Assembly (NCBI RefSeq): GCF_029633865.1
Contig: NC_079219.1
Coordinates: 17,427,310-17,491,309, forward strand
DNA from: Lampris incognitus
Lineage: Eukaryota; Chordata; Actinopteri; Lampriformes; Lampridae
Length of the DNA: 64,000 bases
Reading direction: 5' to 3'
The translations under genes and the position numbers were made by a program. The notes under the pieces were generated by a model. The model saw only the letters and a program-made list of their open reading frames with translations. It was not told the origin of the DNA and made no database searches. Position 1 is the first letter of the stretch. Each line of letters opens with the position of its first letter. Below are positions 1-56,288 of this stretch, in pieces.

Positions 1-152
1 AGAGCTATCATTTGCCACACGGACGGGCACACGGCTGGGCATCGAAGCCCACTTGTTCCGGGTTGAGACCACCAAGGATCTGTCCCTGTGGACCAGGCAC
101 ATTGTCAATGGATGTCACGCCGCAGCTGAAATGATTAAGGAAGTCACTACTA
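1..152 (+). CDS. sntb1: Syntrophin (beta-1-like), exon covering part of the second PH domain; 5' end outside or at window edge
   Basis: Syntrophins are cytoplasmic membrane-associated adaptors of the dystrophin complex (PH1-PDZ-PH1, PH2, SU domains). From base 2 the frame reads ELSFATRTGTRLGIEAHLFR and continues through WTRHIVNGCHAAAEMIKEVTT, the end of the syntrophin PH2 domain as I know it. The exon ends at 152 on a GTGAGT donor (153-158) in phase 1. The first base of the split codon is A and the next exon at 18779 supplies GT, giving a Ser. The frame is open to the window edge, so the exon start is not visible. Beta-1 rather than alpha-1 or beta-2 is inferred from the C-terminal exon and from the mtbp-like neighbour. 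No frame damage is seen. Confidence 0.88.
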
Positions 153-3764: not shown

Positions 3765-4378
3765 AACTTTTTTTTTTTCCCTGCTTTTTCTCCCCAGTTG
3801 TATCAGTTGGCCAATTACCCCACTCTTCCGAGCCGTCCCGGTCTCTGCTCCACCCTCTCTGCCGATCCGGGGAGGGCTGCAGACTACCACATGCCTCCTC
3901 CGATACATGTGGAATCGCCAGCCGCTTCTTTTCACCTGACAGTGAGGATCAAAGAAGGTTGAATCAGTTCACCAGGATACAACGTTTATTGACAGATACG
4001 TTTCATCACTCAACTAAGTGACATCTTCAGTCTGATTCAGTCTGATGAACTGATTCAACCTTCTTTGATTTTCTTAACTGGATTATTGAGCATGCATCAC
4101 GACACTGACAGTGAGGAGTTTCACCAGGGGGACATAGCGCGTGGAAGGATCACGCTATTACCCCCAGTTCCCCCCTGAACAGGCGCCCTGACCGACCAGA
4201 GGAGGCGCTAATGCAGCAACCAGGACACATACCCATGTCCGGCATCCCACCCGCAGACACGACCAATTGTGCCTTTAGGGATGTTCGACCAAGTCGAAGG
4301 TAACGCAGAGATTCGAACCTGCGATCCCCGTGTTGGTGGGCAATGGAATAGAACGCTTTCCTACCCAGACGCCCCTAG
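3765..4378 (-). mobile_element. SINE-B copy, split by a Penelope-like terminal fragment
   Basis: Minus-strand SINE-B: tail side at 3765, tRNA-like head at 4378. Candidate target duplication TTGCCAAAA at 3756-3764 and 4379-4387. The body is interrupted at 3949-4104. Confidence 0.88.
3949..4104 (-). mobile_element. 156-bp Penelope-like terminal fragment in inverted arrangement
   Basis: The flanks repeat CTGACAGTGAGGA (3936-3948 and 4105-4117), a 13-bp target duplication. Inside, GAAGGTTGAATCAGTTCA is mirrored by TGAACTGATTCAACCTTC. Between them the minus strand reads CTGAAGATGTCACTTAGTTG, AGTGATGAAACG and AATAAACG, the same terminal motif as the end of the Penelope-like element near 9941-9990. 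Inverted terminal copies are known for Penelope-like elements. Confidence 0.7.
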
Positions 4379-8401: not shown

Positions 8402-10020
8402 ACAGGATGTGCCATTATGGCCTATTGTTCGTATGATTAACTCAGTGATCTATAACATCTCTAAGTTTCTTGCATCTATTCTTAATCCATTGGCAGGCAG
8501 TAATGAACATCACATTCAGAACACTATGGATTTTGTGGTTAAGATGAGGGACATCATTATGGAGAGGAATTAAACAATGGTCTCTTATGATGTTAAGTCT
8601 CTCTTCATGTGCGTTCTTGTTGATGGAAGGAGTGGAGGTAGTCCATATGAAATCAAAAAACGACCCCACCCTTAGCAATAGGACCACCTTCAACACTGAC
8701 CAAGTGTGTTTGCCCCTGAAACTGTTTCTTCAGTCCATGTACTTCACATACAGAGGCAGTACTATAGGCAGAGGCATGGCTGTGCTATGGTTTCCCAGTT
8801 TTATCTGTAGTGGCCAATTTGTCTATGGAAGAAGTGGAAAAGAGGGCTCTGATGTCCTATCCAGGGATACCACCTAGCCATTGGTTCAGATTTGTGGACA
8901 ATACCTGGGTTAAAATTAAATCTCAGGACATACCACATTTCACCGACCACATTAACTGTGGACAACCACATCAAGTTCACCAGGGTGGATGTGAAAAATG
9001 GCAGGTTAGCCTTCTGAGACTGTGAAATTGCAATTGGTGATGGGGGACATTTGACTGTTGACGTTTACCGTAAACCAACATATACTGATCAGTACTTAAG
9101 GTTTGACTCTCATCATCCACTGGAGCACAAACTAGGAGTCATCAGGACACTGTACCATCACGCTGACAACGTTCCCACCGACACAGCGGCCGGGGAAGGG
9201 AGAAATCCCACATTAAACAGGCCCTGGTTAAGTGTGGTTATCCTAACTGGGTGTTTGTCAAAGCCAGGAAGATGCACAAACAGTGCATCAGCTGATCGAA
9301 GAGAGGAGGACGACAGCTGCCTCAGCATAAACCAGTGGTGCTTCTGTATGAGGCAGGAGTGTCAGAACAGATGAGACGCATATTTTCGAAACACTGCGTC
9401 TCAGTTGCTTTCAAACCCCAAAACACACTGCACCAGAAATTGGTTCACCCCAAGGATCAGGTACCCCTGTACAAACAGAGCAATACAGTGTACACTGGTA
9501 AGTGCCAATAGGATTGCCGTGACTTGTACATTGGGGAAACTAAACAGACACTGGTCAAGAGGATGGCACAACACAGGAGAGCTAACATGTCAGGCCAGGG
9601 CTCCGCAGTCTACACCCATCTACAGGCCAGTGGCCACTCTTTCAAGGATGAGGATGTGCACATCCTTGATAGGGAGGAACGCTAGTTTGAATGGGGAGTC
9701 AAAGAGGCCATATATGTTAAGAGGAAACGAACATTCCTGAACCAAGCGAGGGCTAAGAGTACATTTGTCGCCGTCTTACAATGCTTTGATTACAACTATT
9801 CCCCAATCCTCTGTGAATAGTACACATGGCCATTGTAACTCTAGTTATATAGCAATTTGCATATGAAACCAATCATTGGTTTCAATCGTTATGCGACTGT
9901 ATTGTTTATAAGGGGAGGGGATACCTGCAGTCAGTTTAGACTGAAGAGGTCACTTAGATGAGTGATGAAATGCGTCTGTCAATAAACGTGTCCAGATGAA
10001 CTGATTCACCTTTCTGTGAT
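8402..10020 (+). pseudogene. Penelope-like retroelement, decayed: RT remnants, GIY-YIG endonuclease and 3' terminal motif
   Basis: Penelope-like elements couple a telomerase-related reverse transcriptase to a GIY-YIG nuclease. Frame fragments run in order. 8409-8573 holds an RT-upstream piece (IVRMINSVIYNISKFLASIL). 8580-8620 holds a VSYDVKSLF motif with the first catalytic Asp. 8870-8910 reads FRFVDNTWVKIK, where the expected second Asp of the VDD-type motif is Asn. 9045-9180 reads LTVDVYRKPTYTDQYLRFDS and HHPLEHKLGVIRTLYH. 9521-9820 is one frame reading DLYIGETKQTLVKRMAQHRR, HLQASGHSFKDEDVHILDRE and KRTFLNQARA, with one internal stop near 9685 and a terminal TAG at 9818-9820. Earlier fragments lie in different frames, so it is inactive. 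The 3' end (9936-10020) has the terminal motif shared with 3949-4104. Confidence 0.85.
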
Positions 10021-18778: not shown

Positions 18779-19008
18779 GTTGTCTTTATCAGGGCCAGGA
18801 GTGCCGGCTGGTGGTCCACTACGAACAGGGCTTCTCCGTGTTAACGGAGCCCAGCCGAGGAGATGGAGAGAACGGGGAGGAGAGAGGAGTTCAGACTCCC
18901 GTGAAGCCCAGGGTGCTCCTCTCCTATCCCTTTGAGAAGCTCAAGATGTCCTCCGATGACGGAGTTCGCATGCTCTTCCTCGACTTTGGAGGGAAGGAGG
19001 GCGAGATT
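18779..19008 (+). CDS. sntb1: Syntrophin (beta-1-like), penultimate coding exon: end of PH2 and start of SU domain
   Basis: The exon follows a pyrimidine-rich acceptor ending CAG at 18776-18778 and ends before GTGAGT at 19009. Its 230 bases are two completing a codon plus 76 codons. The frame reads CLYQGQECRLVVHYEQGFSV, then an acidic/Gly-rich insertion (EPSRGDGENGEERGVQT), then FEKLKMSSDDGVRMLFLDFG and GKEGEI. The KLKMSSDDG and LDFGGKEGEI stretches are hallmarks of the syntrophin-unique C-terminal region that contacts dystrophin/dystrobrevin. The acidic insertion looks longer than I recall for mammalian beta-1 and would sit in a PH2 loop. The exon is immediately preceded by poly-G and downstream of a large minisatellite. 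It joins in frame to the exons at 1-152 and 24871. Confidence 0.92.
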
Positions 19009-20275: not shown

Positions 20276-20474
20276 CTAAAACTTTGTTAAAAGAAACACT
20301 CAACGGTAGGGATAGTGCTCAACAAATAAGGAGCAAAATAATCCTGCACGTGATGTGCATGGTGATGCAGTAGATGGTATGTCCTTCCTCGAGTGGATTC
20401 ATTGACAGCTGATGATTGCTTATAGCATGAAACAGGCTTGTACTGTCTCATAGAGAATTTACTTGACTAACTGG
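20276..20474 (+). mobile_element. Penelope-like terminal copy with inverted leader
   Basis: The left part (20280-20343) is the reverse complement of the tail seen at 22932-22993 (ACTTTGTTAAAAGAAACACT, CAACGGTAGGGATAGTGCTC). It is followed in direct orientation by CACGTGATGTGCATGGTGAT and the hammerhead-bearing segment ending ACTTGACTAACTGGATTA. It runs into a TA microsatellite. Confidence 0.6.
20404..20447 (+). ncRNA. Hammerhead ribozyme motif (type I, minimal helix III)
   Basis: Core order matches the hammerhead consensus. Helix I strand GACAG (20404-20408), CTGATGA (20409-20415), helix II TGCT-TAT-AGCA (20417-20427), GAAA (20429-20432), a 2-bp helix III (A-C with G-T around AGGCTT), cleavage triplet GTA (20440-20442), then CTGTC (20443-20447) pairing perfectly with GACAG. 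Hammerheads with very short helix III are known in Penelope-like elements. Inferred from sequence only. Confidence 0.75.
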
Positions 20475-20524
<50 letters not shown>

Positions 20525-20543
20525 TATACATATATATATATAC

Positions 20544-20575
<32 letters not shown>
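20475..20575. repeat. (TA)n microsatellite with TACA interruptions
   Basis: About 100 bp of TA repeats between the Penelope-like terminus and a SINE-C head. Confidence 0.97.
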
Positions 20576-20930
20576 CAGTAGTTAGTGCGGTCGCCTCACA
20601 GCAAGAAGGTCCTGGGTTCGAGCCCCGGGGTAGTCCACCCTTGGGGGTCATCCCGGGTCGTCCTCTGTGTGGAGTTTGCATGCTCTCCCCGTGTCTGCGT
20701 GGGTTTCCTCTGGGAGCTCCGGTTTCCTCCCGCAGTCCAAAGACATGTAGGTCAGTTGAATTTGCCGTACTAAATTATCCCTAGGTATGAATGTGTGGGT
20801 GTGTATGTCGACACTGTGTGATGGCCTGGCGGCCTGTCCAGGGTGTCTCCCTGCCTGCTGCCCAATGATTGCTGGGATAGGCTCCAGCATCCCCGTGACC
20901 CTGAGAGCAGGATAACATTAATTAAACATT
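20576..20930 (+). mobile_element. SINE-C copy, tRNA-derived
   Basis: Head GTCGCCTCACAGCAAGAAGG with B box GGGTTCGAGCCC, body with TTTGCATGCTCTCCCCGTGT, 3' end GCTGGGATAGGCTCCAGCAT and GACCCTGAGAGCAGGATAA. The head is shared with SINE-A but the 3' half differs. Confidence 0.85.
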
Positions 20931-21002
20931 AATTATTCAACCACCTGGAAAATCCTCTCAAAGAACAAAGCATATTCAACCAGCAGTAAAATGTACAATC
21001 TA

Positions 21003-22587
21003 CACTACCGTTCAAAAGTTTGGGATCACCCAAACAATTTTGTGTTTTCCATGAAAAGTCACACTTATTCACCACCATATGTTGTGAAATGAATAGAAAA
21101 TAGAGTCAAGACATTGACAAGGTTAGAAATAATGATTTGTATTTTAAATAAGATTTTTTTTACATCAAACTTTGCTTTCGTCAAAGAATCCTCCATTTGC
21201 AGCAATTACAGCATTGCAGACCTTTGGCATTCTAGCTGCTAATTTGTTGAGGTAATCTGGAGAAATTGCACCCCACGCTTCCAGAAGCAGCTCCCACAAG
21301 TTGGATTGGTTGGATGGGCACTTCTTTGAGCAGATTGAGTTTCTGGAGCATCACATTTGTGGGGTCAATTAAACGCTCAAAATGGCCAGAAAAAGAGAAC
21401 TTTCATCTGAAACTCGACAGTCTATTCTTGTTCTTAGAAATGAAGGCTATTCCATGCGAGAAATTGCTAAGAAATTGAAGATTTCCTACACCGGTGTGTA
21501 CTACTCCCTTCAGAGGACAGCACAAACAGGCTCTAACCAGAGTAGAAAAACAAGTGGGAGGCCGCGTTGCACAACTGAGCAAGAAGATAAGTACATTAGA
21601 GTCTCTAGTTTGAGAAACAGACGCCTCACAGGTCCCCAACTGGCATCTTCATTAAATAGTACCCGCAAAACACCAGTGTCAACATCTACAGTGAAGAGGC
21701 GGCTGCGGGATTCTGGGCTTCAGGGCAGAGTGGCAAAGAAAAAGCCATATCTGAGACTGACCAATAAAAGAAAAAGATTAGGATGGGCAAAAGAACACAG
21801 ACATTGGACAGAGGAAGACTGGAAAAAAGTGTTGTGGACGGATGAATCCAAGTTTGAGGTGTTTGGATCACAAAGAAGAACGTTTGTGAGACGCAGAACA
21901 AATGAAAAGATGCTGGAAGAATGCCTGACGCCATCTGTTAAGCATGGTGGAGGTAATGTGATGGTCTGGGGTTGCTTTGGTGCTGGTAAGGTGGGAGATT
22001 TGTACAGGGTAAAAGGGATTCTGAATAAGGAAGGCTATCACTCCATTTTGCAACGCCATGCCATACCCAGTGGACAGCGCTTGATTGGAGCCAATTTCAT
22101 CCTACAACAGGACAATGACCCTAAACACACCTCCAAATTGTGCAAGAACTATTTAGAGCAGAAGCAGGCAGCTGGTATTCTATCGGTAATGGAGTGGCCA
22201 GCGCAGTCACCAGATCTGAACCCCATTGAGCTGTTGTGGGAGCAGCTTGACCGTATGGTACGCAAGAAGTGCCCATCCAACCAATCCAACTTGTGGGAGC
22301 TGCTTCTGGAAGCGTGGGGTGCAATTTCTCCAGATTACCTCAACAAATTAACAGCTAGAATGCCAAAGGTCTGCAATGCTGTAATTGCTGCAAATGGAGG
22401 ATTCTTTGACGAAAGCAAAGTTTGATGTAAAAAAAATCTTATTTCAAATACAAATCATTATTTCTAACCTTGTCAATGTCTTGACTCTATTTTCTATTCA
22501 TTTCACAACATATGGTGGTGAATAAGTGTGACTTTTCATGGAAAACACAAAATTGTTTGGGTGATCCCAAACTTTTGAACGGTAGTG
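21003..22587 (+). mobile_element. Apparently intact Tc1-type DNA transposon, DD38E (Intruder-like)
   Basis: Flanked by TA (21001-21002, 22588-22589). The ends are CACTACCGTTCAAAAGTTTG and its inverse. The inverted repeats extend about 324 bp (21003-21326 against 22264-22587) without a length difference, so the right repeat includes the last 53 codons of the transposase. Element length 1585 bp with one uninterrupted transposase ORF. It lies in sntb1 intron 2 in the sense orientation. Confidence 0.95.
21382..22425 (+). CDS. Tc1 family transposase, DD38E, 347 residues, full length
   Basis: A cut-and-paste transposase acting on TA targets. Residues 1-110 form the paired-like DNA-binding region with two helix-turn-helix segments (REIAKKLKISYTGVYYSLQR near 27-45) and a GRPR hinge at 59-62. 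The catalytic domain has D154 in LWTDESKF, D244 in QQDNDPKHTS and E283 in SPDLNPIELLW. There are 38 residues between D244 and E283 rather than the 34 of classical Tc1, which is the Intruder signature as I know it. The C-terminus ANGGFFDESKV is normal for the group. The start ATG at 21382 is well placed 55 bp inside the left inverted repeat. No stop or frameshift. Whether it is active cannot be told from sequence alone. Confidence 0.95.
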   Translation: MARKRELSSETRQSILVLRNEGYSMREIAKKLKISYTGVYYSLQRTAQTGSNQSRKTSGRPRCTTEQEDKYIRVSSLRNRRLTGPQLASSLNSTRKTPVSTSTVKRRLRDSGLQGRVAKKKPYLRLTNKRKRLGWAKEHRHWTEEDWKKVLWTDESKFEVFGSQRRTFVRRRTNEKMLEECLTPSVKHGGGNVMVWGCFGAGKVGDLYRVKGILNKEGYHSILQRHAIPSGQRLIGANFILQQDNDPKHTSKLCKNYLEQKQAAGILSVMEWPAQSPDLNPIELLWEQLDRMVRKKCPSNQSNLWELLLEAWGAISPDYLNKLTARMPKVCNAVIAANGGFFDESKV

Positions 22588-22799
22588 TATGTCTAACTGA
22601 AAAATATTTTATCATTTGCAAACCAGAAATGTCCACATTGAATAACAGGAATGAATTGGCCAGCAGTTGCAGACATAGATATAAGCACCTATTTTGTAAT
22701 TATAAATAATTCATGCCAATACCCCCCCCCCCCATTGGACCGTTAGCAATCACGTGTTTTTCAATTTTTGAATGTCGCACCTCTCCCTTCCCCACCGGA

Positions 22800-23000
22800 C
22801 GTTGTGCACGTGATGTGCATGATGAGGCCGTAAACGGTGTCCTATCCCGGATAGCTTTATTGACAGCTGATGATTGCTTATGGCATGAAACAGGCTTGCA
22901 CTGTCTCATAGAGAATTTACTTGACTCACTGGATTATTTTGCTCCTTATTTGTTGAGCACTTTCCTACCGTTGAGTGTTTCTTTTAACAAAGTGTATGTG

Positions 23001-24870: not shown

Positions 24871-24963
24871 CAACTGGACCTCCACTCATGTCCAAAGCCG
24901 ATTGTCTTCATCCTTCACTCCTTCCTCTCTGCAAAGATCTCCCGCCTCGGACTGGTGGCATGA
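24871..24963 (+). CDS. sntb1: Syntrophin (beta-1-like), last coding exon with stop
   Basis: The acceptor CCCTACCAG ends at 24870. Thirty codons follow, beginning [20 protein letters not shown] and ending LGLVA, then TGA at 24961-24963. The final segment is the highly conserved end of the SU domain. The Pro-Ile-Val in CPKPIV and the terminal LGLVA fit beta-1 better than alpha-1 or beta-2 by my recollection. The exon is phase 0 and joins directly to GEI at 19008. Intron 2 is about 5.9 kb and contains a SINE, an intact Tc1 element and Penelope-like fragments. The 3' UTR follows; a possible polyadenylation signal AATAAA is at 26019-26024. Confidence 0.93.
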
Positions 24964-52039: not shown

Positions 52040-55000
52040 TCAAACATGAAAGGTTGACACAAAGTCCTCTAGGTGGCCAGGGCGTAAACGTGTGCGAACA
52101 GGTCGCGGGGCGGCCTGAGGCTGGGCAGGCCGAGGTGGGGAGGGAGATGGCAGGGGAAGCTGAGGCCCAGAAATGTCTGGGGCCCGTGTAGGAGCTGCAT
52201 GAAGCCCCGGGGCGTCTCGCCATGCTGAGGGAATGGCTATGGTTGTGTCACCAGCTGTGTGTGGCGGAGCTGACACCTTCCGTAGACGACTGGAGTGCCA
52301 CCGAGTGCCATCGCTGAGGAGGTAAGTGGCTGGGCCCAGCTGACGGGTGACTTGGAGAGGAGAGGACCAGTATGAAGCCATTTTATTGTCCCTGTGGGGC
52401 CTGCGGACCCTGACCCAGTCTGACACATTGATGTCTGGCACCCTGGTTCGTTTTGACTGGTCAAACCGTTGCTTCATCCGCGTCTGCTGACGAGTGACTG
52501 AGGCTCTGACCCCAGAGGGAGGTGCCTGAGGTGTGGAGGGGCGGAGCCTGTCAAGGGGCATGCACAGTTCCCGGCCTAGCATGAGAGAGGCTGGGGAGAC
52601 GCCTGTGGTCGAGTGCTGTGTGGCCCGATAGTGCAGCAGAGTGTGACGGATGGCCTGCGTGAAAGAGCACCCTTGGGCCATGTGTGCTCTGAGGCCGTTC
52701 TTCAGTGACTGGTGAAAACGTTCAACGCCGCCATTGGCCTGGGGGTGGTAGTACGCAGTGCGTATATGACGGATGCCCTTGCTTTCGAGATAAGCAGTGA
52801 ACTCAGCAGAAACCAGCTGAGGGCCGTTGTCAGTGGTGATGGCCTTTGGGAGGCCCCAGCGAGAGAAAAGAGAGTCCAGGAAGTCGATGATGATCTGTGA
52901 GGTCACAGTGCCGGAAGTGGTGAGTTCAGGCCATTTTGAGTGTAGATCGTAGGCGACCACCATGAAGCGTTGGTGGTGGGGAACTCCATGGATCTCACCA
53001 CAAATGTCCAACTGCAGGTGTTCCCAGGGCTGAGAGGGCCAGGCGAGAGGTTGCAGGGGTGGGGGAGCCTGGTGGCCAGTCTTGCCACTCACAAGGCAGG
53101 CAGAACAGTCCTTCACCAGAGCCTCAATATCTCTGTCTATCCCCGGCCACCACACCAGGTCTCGGCAGCGCTGTTTCAGTTTCACAATGCCCAGGTGGCC
53201 TTCATGCGCCGTATTCAAAACACGTGCACGGAGAGCAGCTGGGACCACTGTGCAAAACCCACGTGCCACGCAGGTGTCGTTCCAGCAGGAGAGCTCCTGT
53301 CTGACTCGGGCGAACGCAGCCAGCTCCTCTGGGACCTTGTGAGGCCAGCCGTTCTGGATGTAGGTGCGGAGCTGGGAGAGGACAGGGTCCTGTTTGGAGG
53401 CTGCCCTCAGCTCCTGCAGAGAGACAGTGGCCTGGAGGGGAGTGTGTAGCATTTGGACAATGTCCTTTTCCACACAGTCAGTGTCCGTCTGTGGAGCTGG
53501 GGTGGAGACAGAGCGAGAGAGCAGGTCGGCGACAACATTGTCTCTGCCTGGGGTGAACTGCAGGCTGAAGTTGTACTGGCGGAGGCGGTCAGACCAGCGG
53601 TGCAGCCTCAGGGGTTTGTGGCCTGTCCCAGATGTGGACAGCAGCGCTGTCAGGGCCTGGTGATCTGTCCTGAGGGTGAAGGAGCGGCCATAGAGGTAGA
53701 GGTGCCACCTTTCACAAGCCCAGATACAGGCTAACGCCTCACGCTCACCCACGGAGTACCGCTGCTCGGTCAGGTTGAGGGCACGGGAGGCGAAGGCAAT
53801 GGGCTTCTCCACACCGTTCTGGGTTTGAGACAGCACGGCCCCTATCGCTGTGGCTGATGCGTCACAGGTCACAAAGGTGGAGCTGGAGATGTCGAAGTGA
53901 GCCAACACTGGTGGTGAAGTCAGTTGAGTCTTGAGATCACGCACAGCGTCACTGCATGCCTTTGACCACACCCATGGCTCGTCCTTACGCAGCAGCTGGC
54001 ACAGGGGGGCTGTGGTCGCAGAGTACTGGGGAAGAAACCTCAGGTAGTAACTTGTCATACCCAGGAAGGAGGCGACCTGGGCGGCCGAGCTGGGCTCAGG
54101 GATGGCCTGAATGGCGTCCACGTTGGATTGTAGTGGAGTTACACCGCTCGCTGACAGCCGGAACCCCACGAAGTCGATGGCTGGCACAGAGAGGACACAT
54201 TTCTCAGCATTGAGAGTTAGCTTGTGCTTGGACAGGGCTGCGAAGACCATGTTAAGGCGCTTGTCGTGGATTTCACTGGTGGGCCCGTGTACCACTATAT
54301 CGTCCAGATAAATGGCCACGCCCAGTATGCCAGCCAGCACGGAGACCATGATTTTCTGGAAGCAGCTAGGGGCGGAGCGGAGACCGAAAGGCATCCTGGT
54401 GTAGCGAAACACTCCTGCATGTGTCACAAAGGCTGTGAGGTTTCGGCTGCTGGGGTGGAGGGGCACCTGTAAGTACCCCTGTCTGAGGTCGAGCTTGGAG
54501 AACACCTCAGAGCCATAGAACTGAGCAGTGAGTTCTTCTGAGGTGGGCAGTGGATACTTATCAGGGACCACTGCCTTATTTACTGCACGTAGATCGACGC
54601 AGACACGCAGGCCCCCCGACTTCTTCTTAGCCACCACGAGGTTTGAGACCCAAGGTGACGCGTCCACCGGTTCAATGATGCCAGCTTCCAGCAGTTGTTG
54701 CAGCTCGGCGGAGACCCCATCACGGAGAGCCAACGGGATGCGGCGCAGTGGTTGGATGACAGATTTCACAGCAGGGTTGAGGAGAGGTTGATGGGTGAAG
54801 GCGGAGAGGCAGCCCAGCCCCATAAACAGCGATGGCCACTTCTGCTGCCAAGGTGTGGCGACAGTCAGGATTGCTGCCCCCCTTGTGTCTAAGAGGGAGA
54901 ACCCCAGAGCAGAGAACAGGTCCAGGCCCATCAGGTTGGCCCCACGGCGTGCCACATGAAAAACTGCATTGGGCACCAGCTTGGTTCCATAGCGGACAGT

Positions 55001-56077
55001 CACTTGGAGAGAGCCAACCAGATCGATTTTGGAGTCACCATACCCACAGAGGACAGCTGAGGGTGCGGACAGTGGCAGTGAACCGAAAAATTGACTGTAG
55101 GTATCAACATTCAGGAGAGACACACTTGCACCGGTGTCCAACAGCAGGGGGATGCACACATCATTAATGTTGACTGTGCATGATTTGAATGACACTGGCC
55201 CAGAGCTCACCTTGTGAATGACGGCGGTTGAAGACTGGGGGGTGTGGCCCTCTGACCCAGCCGGGGAAGATCGACAGACGTTGGCAAAGTGATTGTGCTT
55301 ACCGCAGCTACGGCATGTCTGGCCACGGGCAGGGCAGTTCTGAGCCCTTGAAACATGAGACCGAGAACCACAGTTACCACAGGACTGTTGAGGGCGGGGC
55401 CGAGAACGCCGACGTTGCAGTTGCAAGATGTCCCCAGTGGAGTCGGCGCCCGCCTCGCTCTGGTTGGGTTGCGTCCCGAGGGGCAGCCGTGAGTAGAGGG
55501 AGGAGTCGTTGGCAGCTTGACTGGAGGTGGCCACTTGCTGTGTATTTAGCATAGCAGCACACTCAGCTGCTCCCTCAACCTGTAGTGCGATGGTAATTGC
55601 TCTGGACAGCAGCAGATCGTCTTTTTCCAGCAGGAGAGTCTCACGCACCTTTGCGTTGTTGGTGTGTTCGATTAGCTGGTCGTGAACCATCTCGTCCTGA
55701 AGCGCGCCAAACTTGCATGAGCTAGCTAGCCCTCGCAAATTAGCTACGTACTGCCGCACAGACTCACCAGGCAGTTGGTGTCGCTGACGGAATATAAATC
55801 GCCGAAGGAGGGCACTCTGTGGAGCAGCGAAATGGGTGCTCATAAGTCCCACAGCTTCGGCAAAGCTTGTGACGTTCCCCAGAGTCCCGAGCACACGATG
55901 ACCCTCTGCTCCCAAGCAGTGTAGCAACAGAGGCGTCTTCCTAGCCTGGCTCACGTCGTCGAGCCCTGAGGCGATGATGTAATTTTCAAAACTATGTAGC
56001 CAGCGAGTCCATGGTACCGGAGGCTCGCCAGGTAATGCCAGGAAGGGGGCAGGTGGTGGGAGAGAGATATATCCCAT
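52040..56077 (-). CDS. Gag-Pol polyprotein of Ty3/gypsy element 2, uninterrupted
   Basis: Retrotransposon polyprotein for reverse transcription and integration. The frame is open from 56089, but the first ATG is at 56077 (1345 residues). Numbering from 56089: Gag about 1-230; zinc knuckles C237-C240-H245-C252 (atypical last spacing) and C259-C262-H267-C272 (canonical); protease DTG at 318-320; RT with D534 in SKLDLRQGYL and YLDD at 594-597; RNase H with D743, E783 and D809; integrase zinc region H962/H965/C995/C998; catalytic D1028, D1087 and E1123 (35 residues between the last two). The C-terminus is Pro-rich. Gag and Pol share one frame with no shift or stop. The sequence has all expected catalytic residues, which with near-identical LTRs suggests a recent insertion. 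Confidence 0.95.
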   Translation of the reverse strand: MGYISLPPPAPFLALPGEPPVPWTRWLHSFENYIIASGLDDVSQARKTPLLLHCLGAEGHRVLGTLGNVTSFAEAVGLMSTHFAAPQSALLRRFIFRQRHQLPGESVRQYVANLRGLASSCKFGALQDEMVHDQLIEHTNNAKVRETLLLEKDDLLLSRAITIALQVEGAAECAAMLNTQQVATSSQAANDSSLYSRLPLGTQPNQSEAGADSTGDILQLQRRRSRPRPQQSCGNCGSRSHVSRAQNCPARGQTCRSCGKHNHFANVCRSSPAGSEGHTPQSSTAVIHKVSSGPVSFKSCTVNINDVCIPLLLDTGASVSLLNVDTYSQFFGSLPLSAPSAVLCGYGDSKIDLVGSLQVTVRYGTKLVPNAVFHVARRGANLMGLDLFSALGFSLLDTRGAAILTVATPWQQKWPSLFMGLGCLSAFTHQPLLNPAVKSVIQPLRRIPLALRDGVSAELQQLLEAGIIEPVDASPWVSNLVVAKKKSGGLRVCVDLRAVNKAVVPDKYPLPTSEELTAQFYGSEVFSKLDLRQGYLQVPLHPSSRNLTAFVTHAGVFRYTRMPFGLRSAPSCFQKIMVSVLAGILGVAIYLDDIVVHGPTSEIHDKRLNMVFAALSKHKLTLNAEKCVLSVPAIDFVGFRLSASGVTPLQSNVDAIQAIPEPSSAAQVASFLGMTSYYLRFLPQYSATTAPLCQLLRKDEPWVWSKACSDAVRDLKTQLTSPPVLAHFDISSSTFVTCDASATAIGAVLSQTQNGVEKPIAFASRALNLTEQRYSVGEREALACIWACERWHLYLYGRSFTLRTDHQALTALLSTSGTGHKPLRLHRWSDRLRQYNFSLQFTPGRDNVVADLLSRSVSTPAPQTDTDCVEKDIVQMLHTPLQATVSLQELRAASKQDPVLSQLRTYIQNGWPHKVPEELAAFARVRQELSCWNDTCVARGFCTVVPAALRARVLNTAHEGHLGIVKLKQRCRDLVWWPGIDRDIEALVKDCSACLVSGKTGHQAPPPLQPLAWPSQPWEHLQLDICGEIHGVPHHQRFMVVAYDLHSKWPELTTSGTVTSQIIIDFLDSLFSRWGLPKAITTDNGPQLVSAEFTAYLESKGIRHIRTAYYHPQANGGVERFHQSLKNGLRAHMAQGCSFTQAIRHTLLHYRATQHSTTGVSPASLMLGRELCMPLDRLRPSTPQAPPSGVRASVTRQQTRMKQRFDQSKRTRVPDINVSDWVRVRRPHRDNKMASYWSSPLQVTRQLGPATYLLSDGTRWHSSRLRKVSAPPHTAGDTTIAIPSAWRDAPGLHAAPTRAPDISGPQLPLPSPSPPRPAQPQAAPRPVRTRLRPGHLEDFVSTFHV

Positions 56078-56089
56078 CCTCGTCGCCAA
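56072..56089 (-). promoter_or_regulatory. Primer-binding site overlapping the gag-pol start codon
   Basis: Minus strand TTGGCGACGAGGATGGGA begins right after the 5' LTR. The ATG within it (56077-56075) is the first ATG of the long ORF. Confidence 0.7.
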
Positions 56090-56288
56090 TATTGTATTTT
56101 AAATCACGTCAGGACACAGCGCTGTCGCTCGACACAACCTCTCCGTGGCATTCTTTATTTAGACTGACCCAGCATCAAAGGCAGACCCGATCAAACAACC
56201 CAGAGCCCGCAGGCATCACCAATCGATCCCAGCACAATAGAACAGCACCAAATCAAATGCAGCACTGTCGATGTGTGCATACATAACA
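56090..56288 (-). repeat. 5' LTR of Ty3/gypsy element 2
   Basis: 199 bp, same ends as the 3' LTR. Differences include GACCCAG versus GACACAG, CAACCCAG versus CATCCCAG, and a short change at TATTTTAAAT versus TATTTAGAAAT. Confidence 0.94.

What the first reader, a model, noticed from the sequence alone, without database searches (positions are those of the whole stretch)
20404..22905. A complete hammerhead ribozyme and a decayed twin in paired Penelope-like termini inside sntb1
20404-20447 has every core element in order (CTGATGA, GAAA, GTA), a perfect 5-bp helix I, a 4-bp helix II and the 2-bp helix III typical of minimal hammerheads. The twin at 22862-22905 keeps the same helices but has GCA at the cleavage site, predicted to be inactive. 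An inverted copy of the tail precedes the first copy, the arrangement known for Penelope-like termini. The two copies flank a SINE and an intact Tc1. Both lie on the sense strand of sntb1 intron 2, so the first could cut the pre-mRNA.
Basis: partly seen in the sequence, partly recalled or inferred. Interest (0 to 1): 0.75.

Follow-up and report, generated by a model that had tools for sequence, protein, structure and literature searches.

The report
Self-cleaving RNA motif in fish retrotransposon
The sequence is a real hammerhead-type (self-cleaving RNA) motif, but it is one of well over a thousand copies that a Penelope-like retrotransposon has left in this genome, probably works best as a pair, and seems to lie by chance in an intron of a syntrophin (muscle-membrane protein) gene.

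Summary
Confirmed: 20404-20447 holds every hammerhead core element in order, and 22862-22905 is a tandem twin with GCA at the cleavage site. A strict descriptor finds one site in the window (the first) and none in 200 shuffles. It is not rare: the exact 34-nt ribozyme occurs 1346 times in this genome, the GCA form 31 times. The copies are 3' ends of a Penelope-like element whose relatives carry a YRDD reverse-transcriptase-like and a GIY-YIG-like domain. A second family there has a related hammerhead with different helices; in 27 of 27 comparisons of pseudo-LTRs it is the best conserved stretch. That predicts a double hammerhead: as a monomer the hammerhead is not the best fold, but the best fold of left plus right contains the double-hammerhead helices. 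Rfam gives no hit at threshold. The host gene is a syntrophin, last intron, sense strand. New member of a known kind; cleavage and any effect on the gene are untested.

The parts
20281..20344 (-). Inverted copy of the element's 3' 'tail', left boundary of the insertion
   Evidence: Reverse complement of about 22930-22992, 97% over the aligned 61 nt (locus L001); outer end read by eye
20345..20479 (+). Left pseudo-LTR, 5'-truncated, without tail, running into (TA)n
   Evidence: Aligned with the right copy; 44 scored matches (lower bound) in the same genome
20404..20447 (+). Left hammerhead motif: helix I 20404-20408/20443-20447, CUGAUGA 20409-20415, helix II 20416-20428 (U.U then 4 pairs, triloop UAU), GAAA 20429-20432, helix III CA/UG with loop GGCU 20435-20438, cleavage predicted after 20442
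   Evidence: descriptor and shuffles; family comparison
20576..20923 (+). SINE-like repeat between the two copies
   Evidence: Similar copies in other fetched loci; edges approximate
20924..21003 (+). Element body: part of the endonuclease C-terminal coding region, cut off by the Tc1
   Evidence: 94.9-97.5% identical to other copies in the full-length rows shown
21001..22589 (+). Tc1-type DNA transposon nested in the element, open transposase frame 21373-22425
   Evidence: TIRs 21001-21326/22264-22589, 99% complementary; Pfam PF01498, PF13358; joined flanks align to uninterrupted copies
22589..22804 (+). Element 3' coding end and 3' UTR
   Evidence: First 113 nt 97-99% identical to the best copy of each locus in the rows shown
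22805..22937 (+). Right pseudo-LTR
22862..22905 (+). Right hammerhead motif, same helices, core intact, GCA instead of GUA at the cleavage triplet
   Evidence: model R1 match 80.7 bits (the model includes this sequence); the exact GCA form occurs 31 times in the genome
22930..22992 (+). 3' tail of the right copy, right boundary of the insertion
   Evidence: Present in some copies (e.g. L015, L018, L022, L029), absent in others, e.g. L007, L008

Best explanation
The two motifs are hammerhead ribozymes of the pseudo-LTRs of an old, multicopy Penelope-like retrotransposon. SHOWN: the left copy keeps all core nucleotides and the three helices; the exact ribozyme occurs over a thousand times in the genome; related copies continue upstream into a reading frame with YRDD and GIY-YIG-like motifs; a second family carries a hammerhead with different helix letters and the same consensus core. 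INFERRED: the ribozyme works mainly as a double hammerhead. The 8-nt arm-loop-arm of helix III (CAGGCUUG) is self-complementary, so two copies can share a 10-bp helix III, and the core of one copy cuts the GUA of the other; in the element's life this would process its RNA. In this window only one half-site would be good: the right copy's intact core on the left copy's GUA; the left core would face the right copy's GCA. Its place in the syntrophin intron is most likely a chance insertion, with at most weak cutting of the pre-mRNA.
For: Exact 34-mer 1346 times, reversed control 0. Of 36 distinct family 1 hammerheads in the first loci (L001-L042 and the window, chosen for similarity to the left copy), core intact in 35, GAAA in 35, U16.1 site in 32, all three in 30, self-complementary loop in 34. 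Pseudo-LTRs of 3 family 1 and 9 family 2 copies, up to 340 nt: the hammerhead is the best match in 27 of 27 comparisons, E<0.001 in 24 of 27 (4.7e-8 to 8.6e-4; the other three 0.003, 0.003, 0.008); no other match is better than 0.008. Paired changes between families: A-U to G-C in helix I (7 rows), U-A/U-G to G-C/G-U at the loop end of helix II; 88.5% of cells paired against 25-49% when slid. Loop ends G-U, G-C or A-U in 32 of 33 rows. By dimer energy minus twice the monomer energy GGCC ranks 1, AGCU 12, GGCU 16 of 256 loops. The unconstrained fold of left+right contains the double-hammerhead helices; its extra pairs tie up only the left core with the right GCA. YRDD frames with a C-terminal YVGLTEG... 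part. Rfam's best match to the 95-nt stretch is Hammerhead_HH9 with the core in register. U10.1-U11.1 occurs in natural hammerheads and is the best tolerated mismatch there (PMC3088659, section 8 read).
Against: No Rfam match at the gathering score, none to a hammerhead at E<=10 on the 2.7-kb stretch; HH9 only 13 bits against 52; RF00163 not found in the genome, though only 73 of 202055 candidates were scored. Monomer folds of 58-141 nt are not better than shuffles (z +0.57 to -0.85). For left+left and right+right the best two-strand fold is not the double hammerhead. The U-U mismatch stands in 22 of 25 family 1 rows of A2. Family 2 copies are decayed: all core features in 2 of 8; 3 of 12 family 2 and 1 of 4 further family 1 loci fetched downstream of the endonuclease gave no hammerhead match and were not compared. 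Covariation rests on essentially one between-family event; pairs with a change on both sides (3) and further pair types (10) do not exceed the column shuffles (389 and 489 of 500 reach them). Pfam recognises neither the reverse transcriptase nor the endonuclease, so Penelope membership rests on motifs and anatomy. Of the 100 listed of 1346 exact copies (contig C1 only), 6 of 6 neighbouring pairs closer than 2 kb are head-to-head, not tandem.
Confidence: 0.82

Rival explanations
1. A monomeric hammerhead: the left copy folds alone, helped by a long outer helix I, and cuts its own transcript, including the syntrophin pre-mRNA.
For: All core elements in one 44-nt stretch; an outer 12-bp stem (UCGAGUGGAUUC/GAAUUUACUUGA) closes the hammerhead region in both the best and the constrained fold of the left copy.
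Against: Hammerhead fold 3.5 kcal/mol above the best fold; helix III of 3 bp counting A15.1-U16.1, and a U-U mismatch in helix II; related small hammerheads are reported to need dimers (PMC6466107, PMC7761336, passages seen) or the element's protein (PMC11167929).
Confidence: 0.2
2. A fossil: the family's ribozyme was already poor (U-U at 10.1-11.1), and no copy, including this one, cleaves at a useful rate today.
For: U-U in 22 of 25 family 1 rows; no Rfam hit at threshold; weak monomer fold.
Against: The hammerhead is the best conserved stretch between the two families (27 of 27 comparisons); 1346 exact copies; U-U is the best tolerated mismatch at this place (PMC3088659).
Confidence: 0.3
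3. Not a ribozyme: the conserved segment is kept for another reason, such as binding of the element's protein or DNA cleavage at the pseudo-LTR, and resembles a hammerhead by chance.
For: In PMC11167929 the protein is thought to bind the adjacent start of the ORF, and ribozyme mutants did not reduce insertion in vitro.
Against: Changes between the families fall in helices and loops while the consensus CUGAUGA, GAAA and UA stay; a chance descriptor hit is not seen in 200 shuffles.
Confidence: 0.06

Closest known systems
Small hammerhead variants of Penelope-like elements that cleave as dimers (Lunse, Weinberg, Breaker; paper not held, known here through PMC6466107 and PMC7761336, passages)
   Same: Hammerhead in a pseudo-LTR, helix III of two or three pairs, self-complementary loop, copies sometimes in tandem
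   Different: Family 1 here has a U-U at 10.1-11.1 and a wobble palindrome (CAGGCUUG); cleavage not tested; no sequence comparison with the published ones was possible
PAc, the Poseidon element of Anolis carolinensis (PMC11167929, abstract and sections 3 and 11 read)
   Same: Pseudo-LTR hammerhead; optional tail ending 111-118 nt into the ORF there and about 117-120 nt after A9 here; AT-rich targets; cut 26 nt after the start codon there, 28 nt after A9 here (equating the two points is my inference)
   Different: In both window copies the frame from the ATG in the core stops after 13 codons; the reverse transcriptase of relatives is not matched by Pfam; protein dependence unknown
Penelope elements of the rotifer Adineta vaga (PMC3846280, passages seen)
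   Same: Direct and inverted pseudo-LTRs, optional tail, frequent head-to-head inverted pairs, 5' truncation
   Different: Hammerhead not mentioned in that paper (0 occurrences)
Hammerhead_HH9 (Rfam RF02275)
   Same: Core aligned in register; best of 4227 families for the 95-nt stretch
   Different: 13 bits against a cut-off of 52; HH9's consensus has a regular helix II

Membership tests
Hammerhead ribozyme, type I | Core CUGANGA and GAAA, NUH cleavage triplet, in order | tested here: met
   Left copy all three; right copy lacks U16.1 (GCA)
Hammerhead ribozyme, type I | Three helices around the core | tested here: met
   Helix I 5 bp, helix II 4 bp after a U-U mismatch, helix III 2 bp plus A15.1-U16.1
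Hammerhead ribozyme, type I | Match to a curated covariance model at its threshold | tested here: not met
   No match at gathering score; HH9 13.0 bits, E 0.77, best of the library on 95 nt. Of 5 family 2 loci 1 gave HH9 at 19.0 bits and 4 no hammerhead at E<=10, so the models seem insensitive to this group
Hammerhead ribozyme, type I | Self-cleavage at the predicted bond | not testable with these tools
   Needs bench work
Penelope-like element | Reverse transcriptase with C-terminal GIY-YIG endonuclease in one frame | tested here: inconclusive
   One open frame with YRDD and YVGLTEG... in L059 (484 aa) and L060 (340 aa); such sequence lies upstream of the same pseudo-LTR in L031, L036, L057, L058; no Pfam match to either domain; motifs recognised from knowledge
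Penelope-like element | Direct and inverted pseudo-LTRs, optional tail, 5' truncation | tested here: met
Dimeric (double) hammerhead | Self-complementary helix III loop | tested here: met
   Both inner pairs possible in 34 of 36 family 1 sequences and 8 of 8 family 2 rows
Dimeric (double) hammerhead | Two motifs in tandem in one transcript | tested here: inconclusive
   2458 nt apart on the same strand: met for the DNA; that one transcript holds both is inferred from the gene, not shown
Dimeric (double) hammerhead | Higher activity of two-copy than one-copy RNA | not testable with these tools
   Needs bench work

The most novel reading that the evidence does not exclude
In the syntrophin pre-mRNA the two copies fold into a one-sided double hammerhead in which the 'decayed' right copy supplies the catalytic core and the left copy the cleavable GUA, so the intron is cut at 20442/20443 before splicing of the last exon, in competition with it.
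Probability: 0.06. Interest if true: 0.7.

Novelty: new member of a known kind. Interest (0 to 1): 0.36.

Why it matters
It adds to the Penelope-associated hammerheads two families, one with over a thousand identical ribozyme copies in one genome, which Rfam's thresholds miss. The three loop types (GGCU, GGCC, AGCU) that keep self-complementarity give a direct, cheap test of whether dimer formation is what selection preserves; [quoted passage not shown]

Tried and rejected
Whole-window Rfam scan at threshold: nothing. Rfam at E<=10 on 2.7 kb: matches to AT-rich microsatellite and chance ones, no hammerhead. Genome-wide RF00163: none, but only 73 of 202055 candidates scored. RF00008: not completed. 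Single-strand folding of 58-141 nt: no better than shuffles. The Tc1 as carrier of the motif: rejected, it is nested inside the element. A large 'GCA subfamily' as the origin of the right copy: no sign of it, 31 GCA against 1346 GTA exact copies. Other CTGANGA..GAAA matches in the window (12 besides the two; 3.7 expected by chance for all): two alike ones at 4001-4030(-) and 9941-9970(+) were checked with Rfam and give no hammerhead match; the others were not followed. Recalled syntrophin PDZ peptides: only weak matches, taken as chance. Papers not held: Cervera and de la Pena 2014, Lunse and others. Literature searches: the listings show no paper whose title or abstract start describes these families; most listed papers were not opened, and subscription papers are not covered. 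Counting family 2 genome-wide: not answered.

After the report check I recounted. The full set is 27 comparisons, with three hammerhead matches above E 0.001, as reported now. Rows dropped: alignment A2 holds 22 of the 36 distinct family 1 sequences (11 left out for another length, 3 of 58 nt left out as the most divergent or frame-shifted) plus L055, L057, L058; itself kept only matches spanning the whole hammerhead. L052 (family 2, 5' part of the core missing) is not in A2 but is.
Full report
WHAT IS THERE. The letters and coordinates of the finding are correct. In the left copy helix I is GACAG/CUGUC (20404-20408 with 20443-20447), the core CUGAUGA is 20409-20415, helix II is 20416-20428, GAAA is 20429-20432, helix III is CA/UG around the loop GGCU, and the triplet GUA ends at 20442. 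The right copy has the same helices, one U-A changed to U·G in helix II, and GCA in place of GUA. A strict descriptor (5-bp helix I, 4-bp helix II with a U·U allowed first, at least 2 bp of helix III, NUH) finds one site in the window, the left copy, and none in 200 dinucleotide-preserving shuffles.

CORRECTIONS. Helix II begins with a U·U mismatch at positions 10.1-11.1 and only then has four standard pairs. That pair is normally the best conserved of helix II, but a U·U start has been seen in natural hammerheads and supports more cleavage than other mismatches there (PMC3088659, section 8). The GCA of the right copy breaks A15.1-U16.1; the same section says that wild types were at least tenfold more active than mutants at 15.1 and 16.1, and its reference list has an 'NHH rule' paper (title only), so strongly weakened is safer than dead.

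WHAT IT BELONGS TO. The window lies in a genome of 1.48 Gb. The 132-nt left pseudo-LTR has 44 scored matches, a lower bound, out of 2093 first-look candidates of which 40 were scored. Copies share the 3' end and are cut at varying 5' points, as retroelements are. Some end at CTGGATTA and run into TA-rich DNA, others continue with a tail of about 55 nt, and inverted tails or inverted pseudo-LTRs occur in several loci. In copies that reach further upstream, sequence with HRDD and, in another copy...YIGLTEGTFKKRFNAHV... lies before the pseudo-LTR (L031, L036). The 122-aa endonuclease-like stretch has 150 scored matches out of 1786 candidates. Single-copy open frames of 484 and 340 aa join the YRDD part and the endonuclease-like part. 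Pfam matches neither domain, so the assignment to Penelope-like elements rests on these motifs, which I recognise from knowledge, and on the anatomy: direct and inverted pseudo-LTRs with an optional tail (PMC3846280, passages), and a tail that ends about 117-120 nt after A9 here against 111-118 nt into the ORF in the Anolis element (PMC11167929; equating the two starting points is my inference).

THE LOCAL BUILD. Left unit: inverted tail 20281-20344, then a 5'-truncated pseudo-LTR without tail 20345-20479, then (TA)n. Right unit: end of the endonuclease coding region from 20924, interrupted by a Tc1 (21001-22589), continued at 22589 through the 3' UTR to the pseudo-LTR (22805-22937) and tail (to 22992). 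Joining the Tc1 flanks in a script gives a stretch that aligns in one piece to other copies. A SINE-like repeat (about 20576-20923) lies between the units. Whether the two units are one rearranged insertion or two is not settled, and I found no clear target-site duplication by eye. The whole lies in an intron between syntrophin exons at about 18779-19008 and 24874-24957 on the same strand (recalled query peptides; Pfam PF23012 E 4.1e-22); a further exon lies at the start of the window (2-148). The exon at 24874 matches the C-terminus of the recalled protein, so this is the last coding intron. That it is sntb1 and not another syntrophin rests on recalled sequence only.

IS THE RIBOZYME MORE THAN A LOOK-ALIKE? 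Of 36 distinct family 1 hammerheads found in the window and loci L001-L042, chosen for similarity to the left copy, the core is intact in 35, GAAA in 35, the U16.1 site in 32, all three in 30. Genome-wide the exact 34-nt ribozyme occurs 1346 times (660 + and 686 -, reversed control 0) and the GCA version 31 times. A second family, whose endonuclease is 64-69% identical (12 loci picked), has hammerheads of the kind CUGAUGA-GUGC-GCGAU-GCAC-GAAA-CAAGCUUG or CAGGCCUG-UA-CUGC; 9 of the 12 loci show one, one of them partial, as do 3 of 4 further family 1 loci. Comparing pseudo-LTRs of these 3 with these 9 over up to 340 nt, the hammerhead is the best match in 27 of 27 comparisons, with E below 0.001 in 24 (4.7e-8 to 8.6e-4) and 0.003, 0.003 and 0.008 in the others; no other match is better than 0.008. 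Changes between families fall in helices and loops and keep pairing: A-U to G-C in helix I, U-A or U·G to G-C or G·U in helix II. On 33 rows 88.5% of cells pair, against 25-49% with partners slid by 1-3 columns; cells paired, cells with double changes and the covariation score exceed all 500 column shuffles, but the number of pairs with double changes (3) and of further pair types (10) do not. This is in essence one between-family event, so it is support, not proof. Family 2 copies are decayed: all core features in 2 of 8.

COVARIANCE MODELS. Rfam gives no match at threshold and none to a hammerhead at E<=10 on the 2.7-kb stretch. Given only 95 nt, the best of 4227 families is Hammerhead_HH9, 13.0 bits against a cut-off of 52, E 0.77, with the core in register. 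Of five family 2 loci one gives HH9 at 19.0 bits and four give no hammerhead match, so Rfam's models seem insensitive to this group. My own model finds both copies at 86.5 and 80.7 bits and nothing else convincing (next 13.9 bits, E 0.13), but the model contains both.

HOW IT LIKELY WORKS. As a single molecule the hammerhead is not the favoured fold: -6.5 against -9.7 kcal/mol for 58 nt of the left copy, and 3.5 kcal/mol above the best fold for 101 nt, where a 12-bp outer stem closes the hammerhead region; for the right copy the gap is 4.1. But the 8 nt of helix III and its loop are self-complementary: CAGGCUUG here (with two G·U), CAGGCCUG and CAAGCUUG in family 2. Over all 256 loops in this frame, the gain of the double hammerhead over two monomers ranks GGCC 1, AGCU 12 and GGCU 16. 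For left plus right the unconstrained two-strand fold (-27.6) contains the helices of the double hammerhead (-25.7 by itself) plus seven more pairs; two of these tie the left core to the right GCA, leaving the other half (right core, left GUA) open. For left plus left the best fold is a different one, though the energies are close (-28.1 and -27.3), and for right plus right also (-28.2 and -24.1). Double hammerheads with palindromic loops are reported for Penelope-like elements (PMC6466107 and PMC7761336, passages; the primary paper is not held). In a double hammerhead each core cuts the other strand's site, so here the right core on the left GUA would be the only good half-site. Against routine tandem pairing: among the 100 listed of the 1346 exact matches (contig C1 only), 6 of 6 neighbouring pairs closer than 2 kb are head-to-head; L008 however holds three direct copies about 155 nt apart.

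VERDICT. A real hammerhead motif, new member of the known Penelope-associated group. With over a thousand exact copies in the genome, finding one in sense in an intron needs no special explanation; I inferred this and did not compute it. Whether it cleaves, alone or as a pair, and whether the gene notices, is untested.

Noticed in passing
window 4001-4030 (-) and 9941-9970 (+): Two alike CTGAAGA...GAAA repeats. They recall (from memory) a common fish repeat with a hammerhead-like core, but helix II is irregular and Rfam gives no hammerhead match.
   Followed up: partly
window 8768-9374 (+): Open stretches with VYRKPTYTDQYLRFDSHHPLEHKL, which looks like a different Penelope-type reverse transcriptase remnant; no Pfam match.
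   Followed up: partly
window 52040-56098 (-): A 1352-codon open frame with reverse transcriptase, RNase H, integrase zinc-binding and integrase core domains: an LTR retrotransposon frame without stops.
   Followed up: no
L008 1554-1919: Three direct hammerhead copies about 155 nt apart, a short tandem array of pseudo-LTR ends.
   Followed up: no
G000 C1, 2680142-2680243 and 18537832-18537910: Head-to-head pairs of exact ribozyme copies less than 100 nt apart; their RNA would fold into hairpins.
   Followed up: no
L059 388-1839, L060 470-1489: Open frames with YRDD and GIY-YIG-like motifs (L059 also LKDHKPNF) that no Pfam reverse transcriptase or endonuclease model matches.
   Followed up: partly
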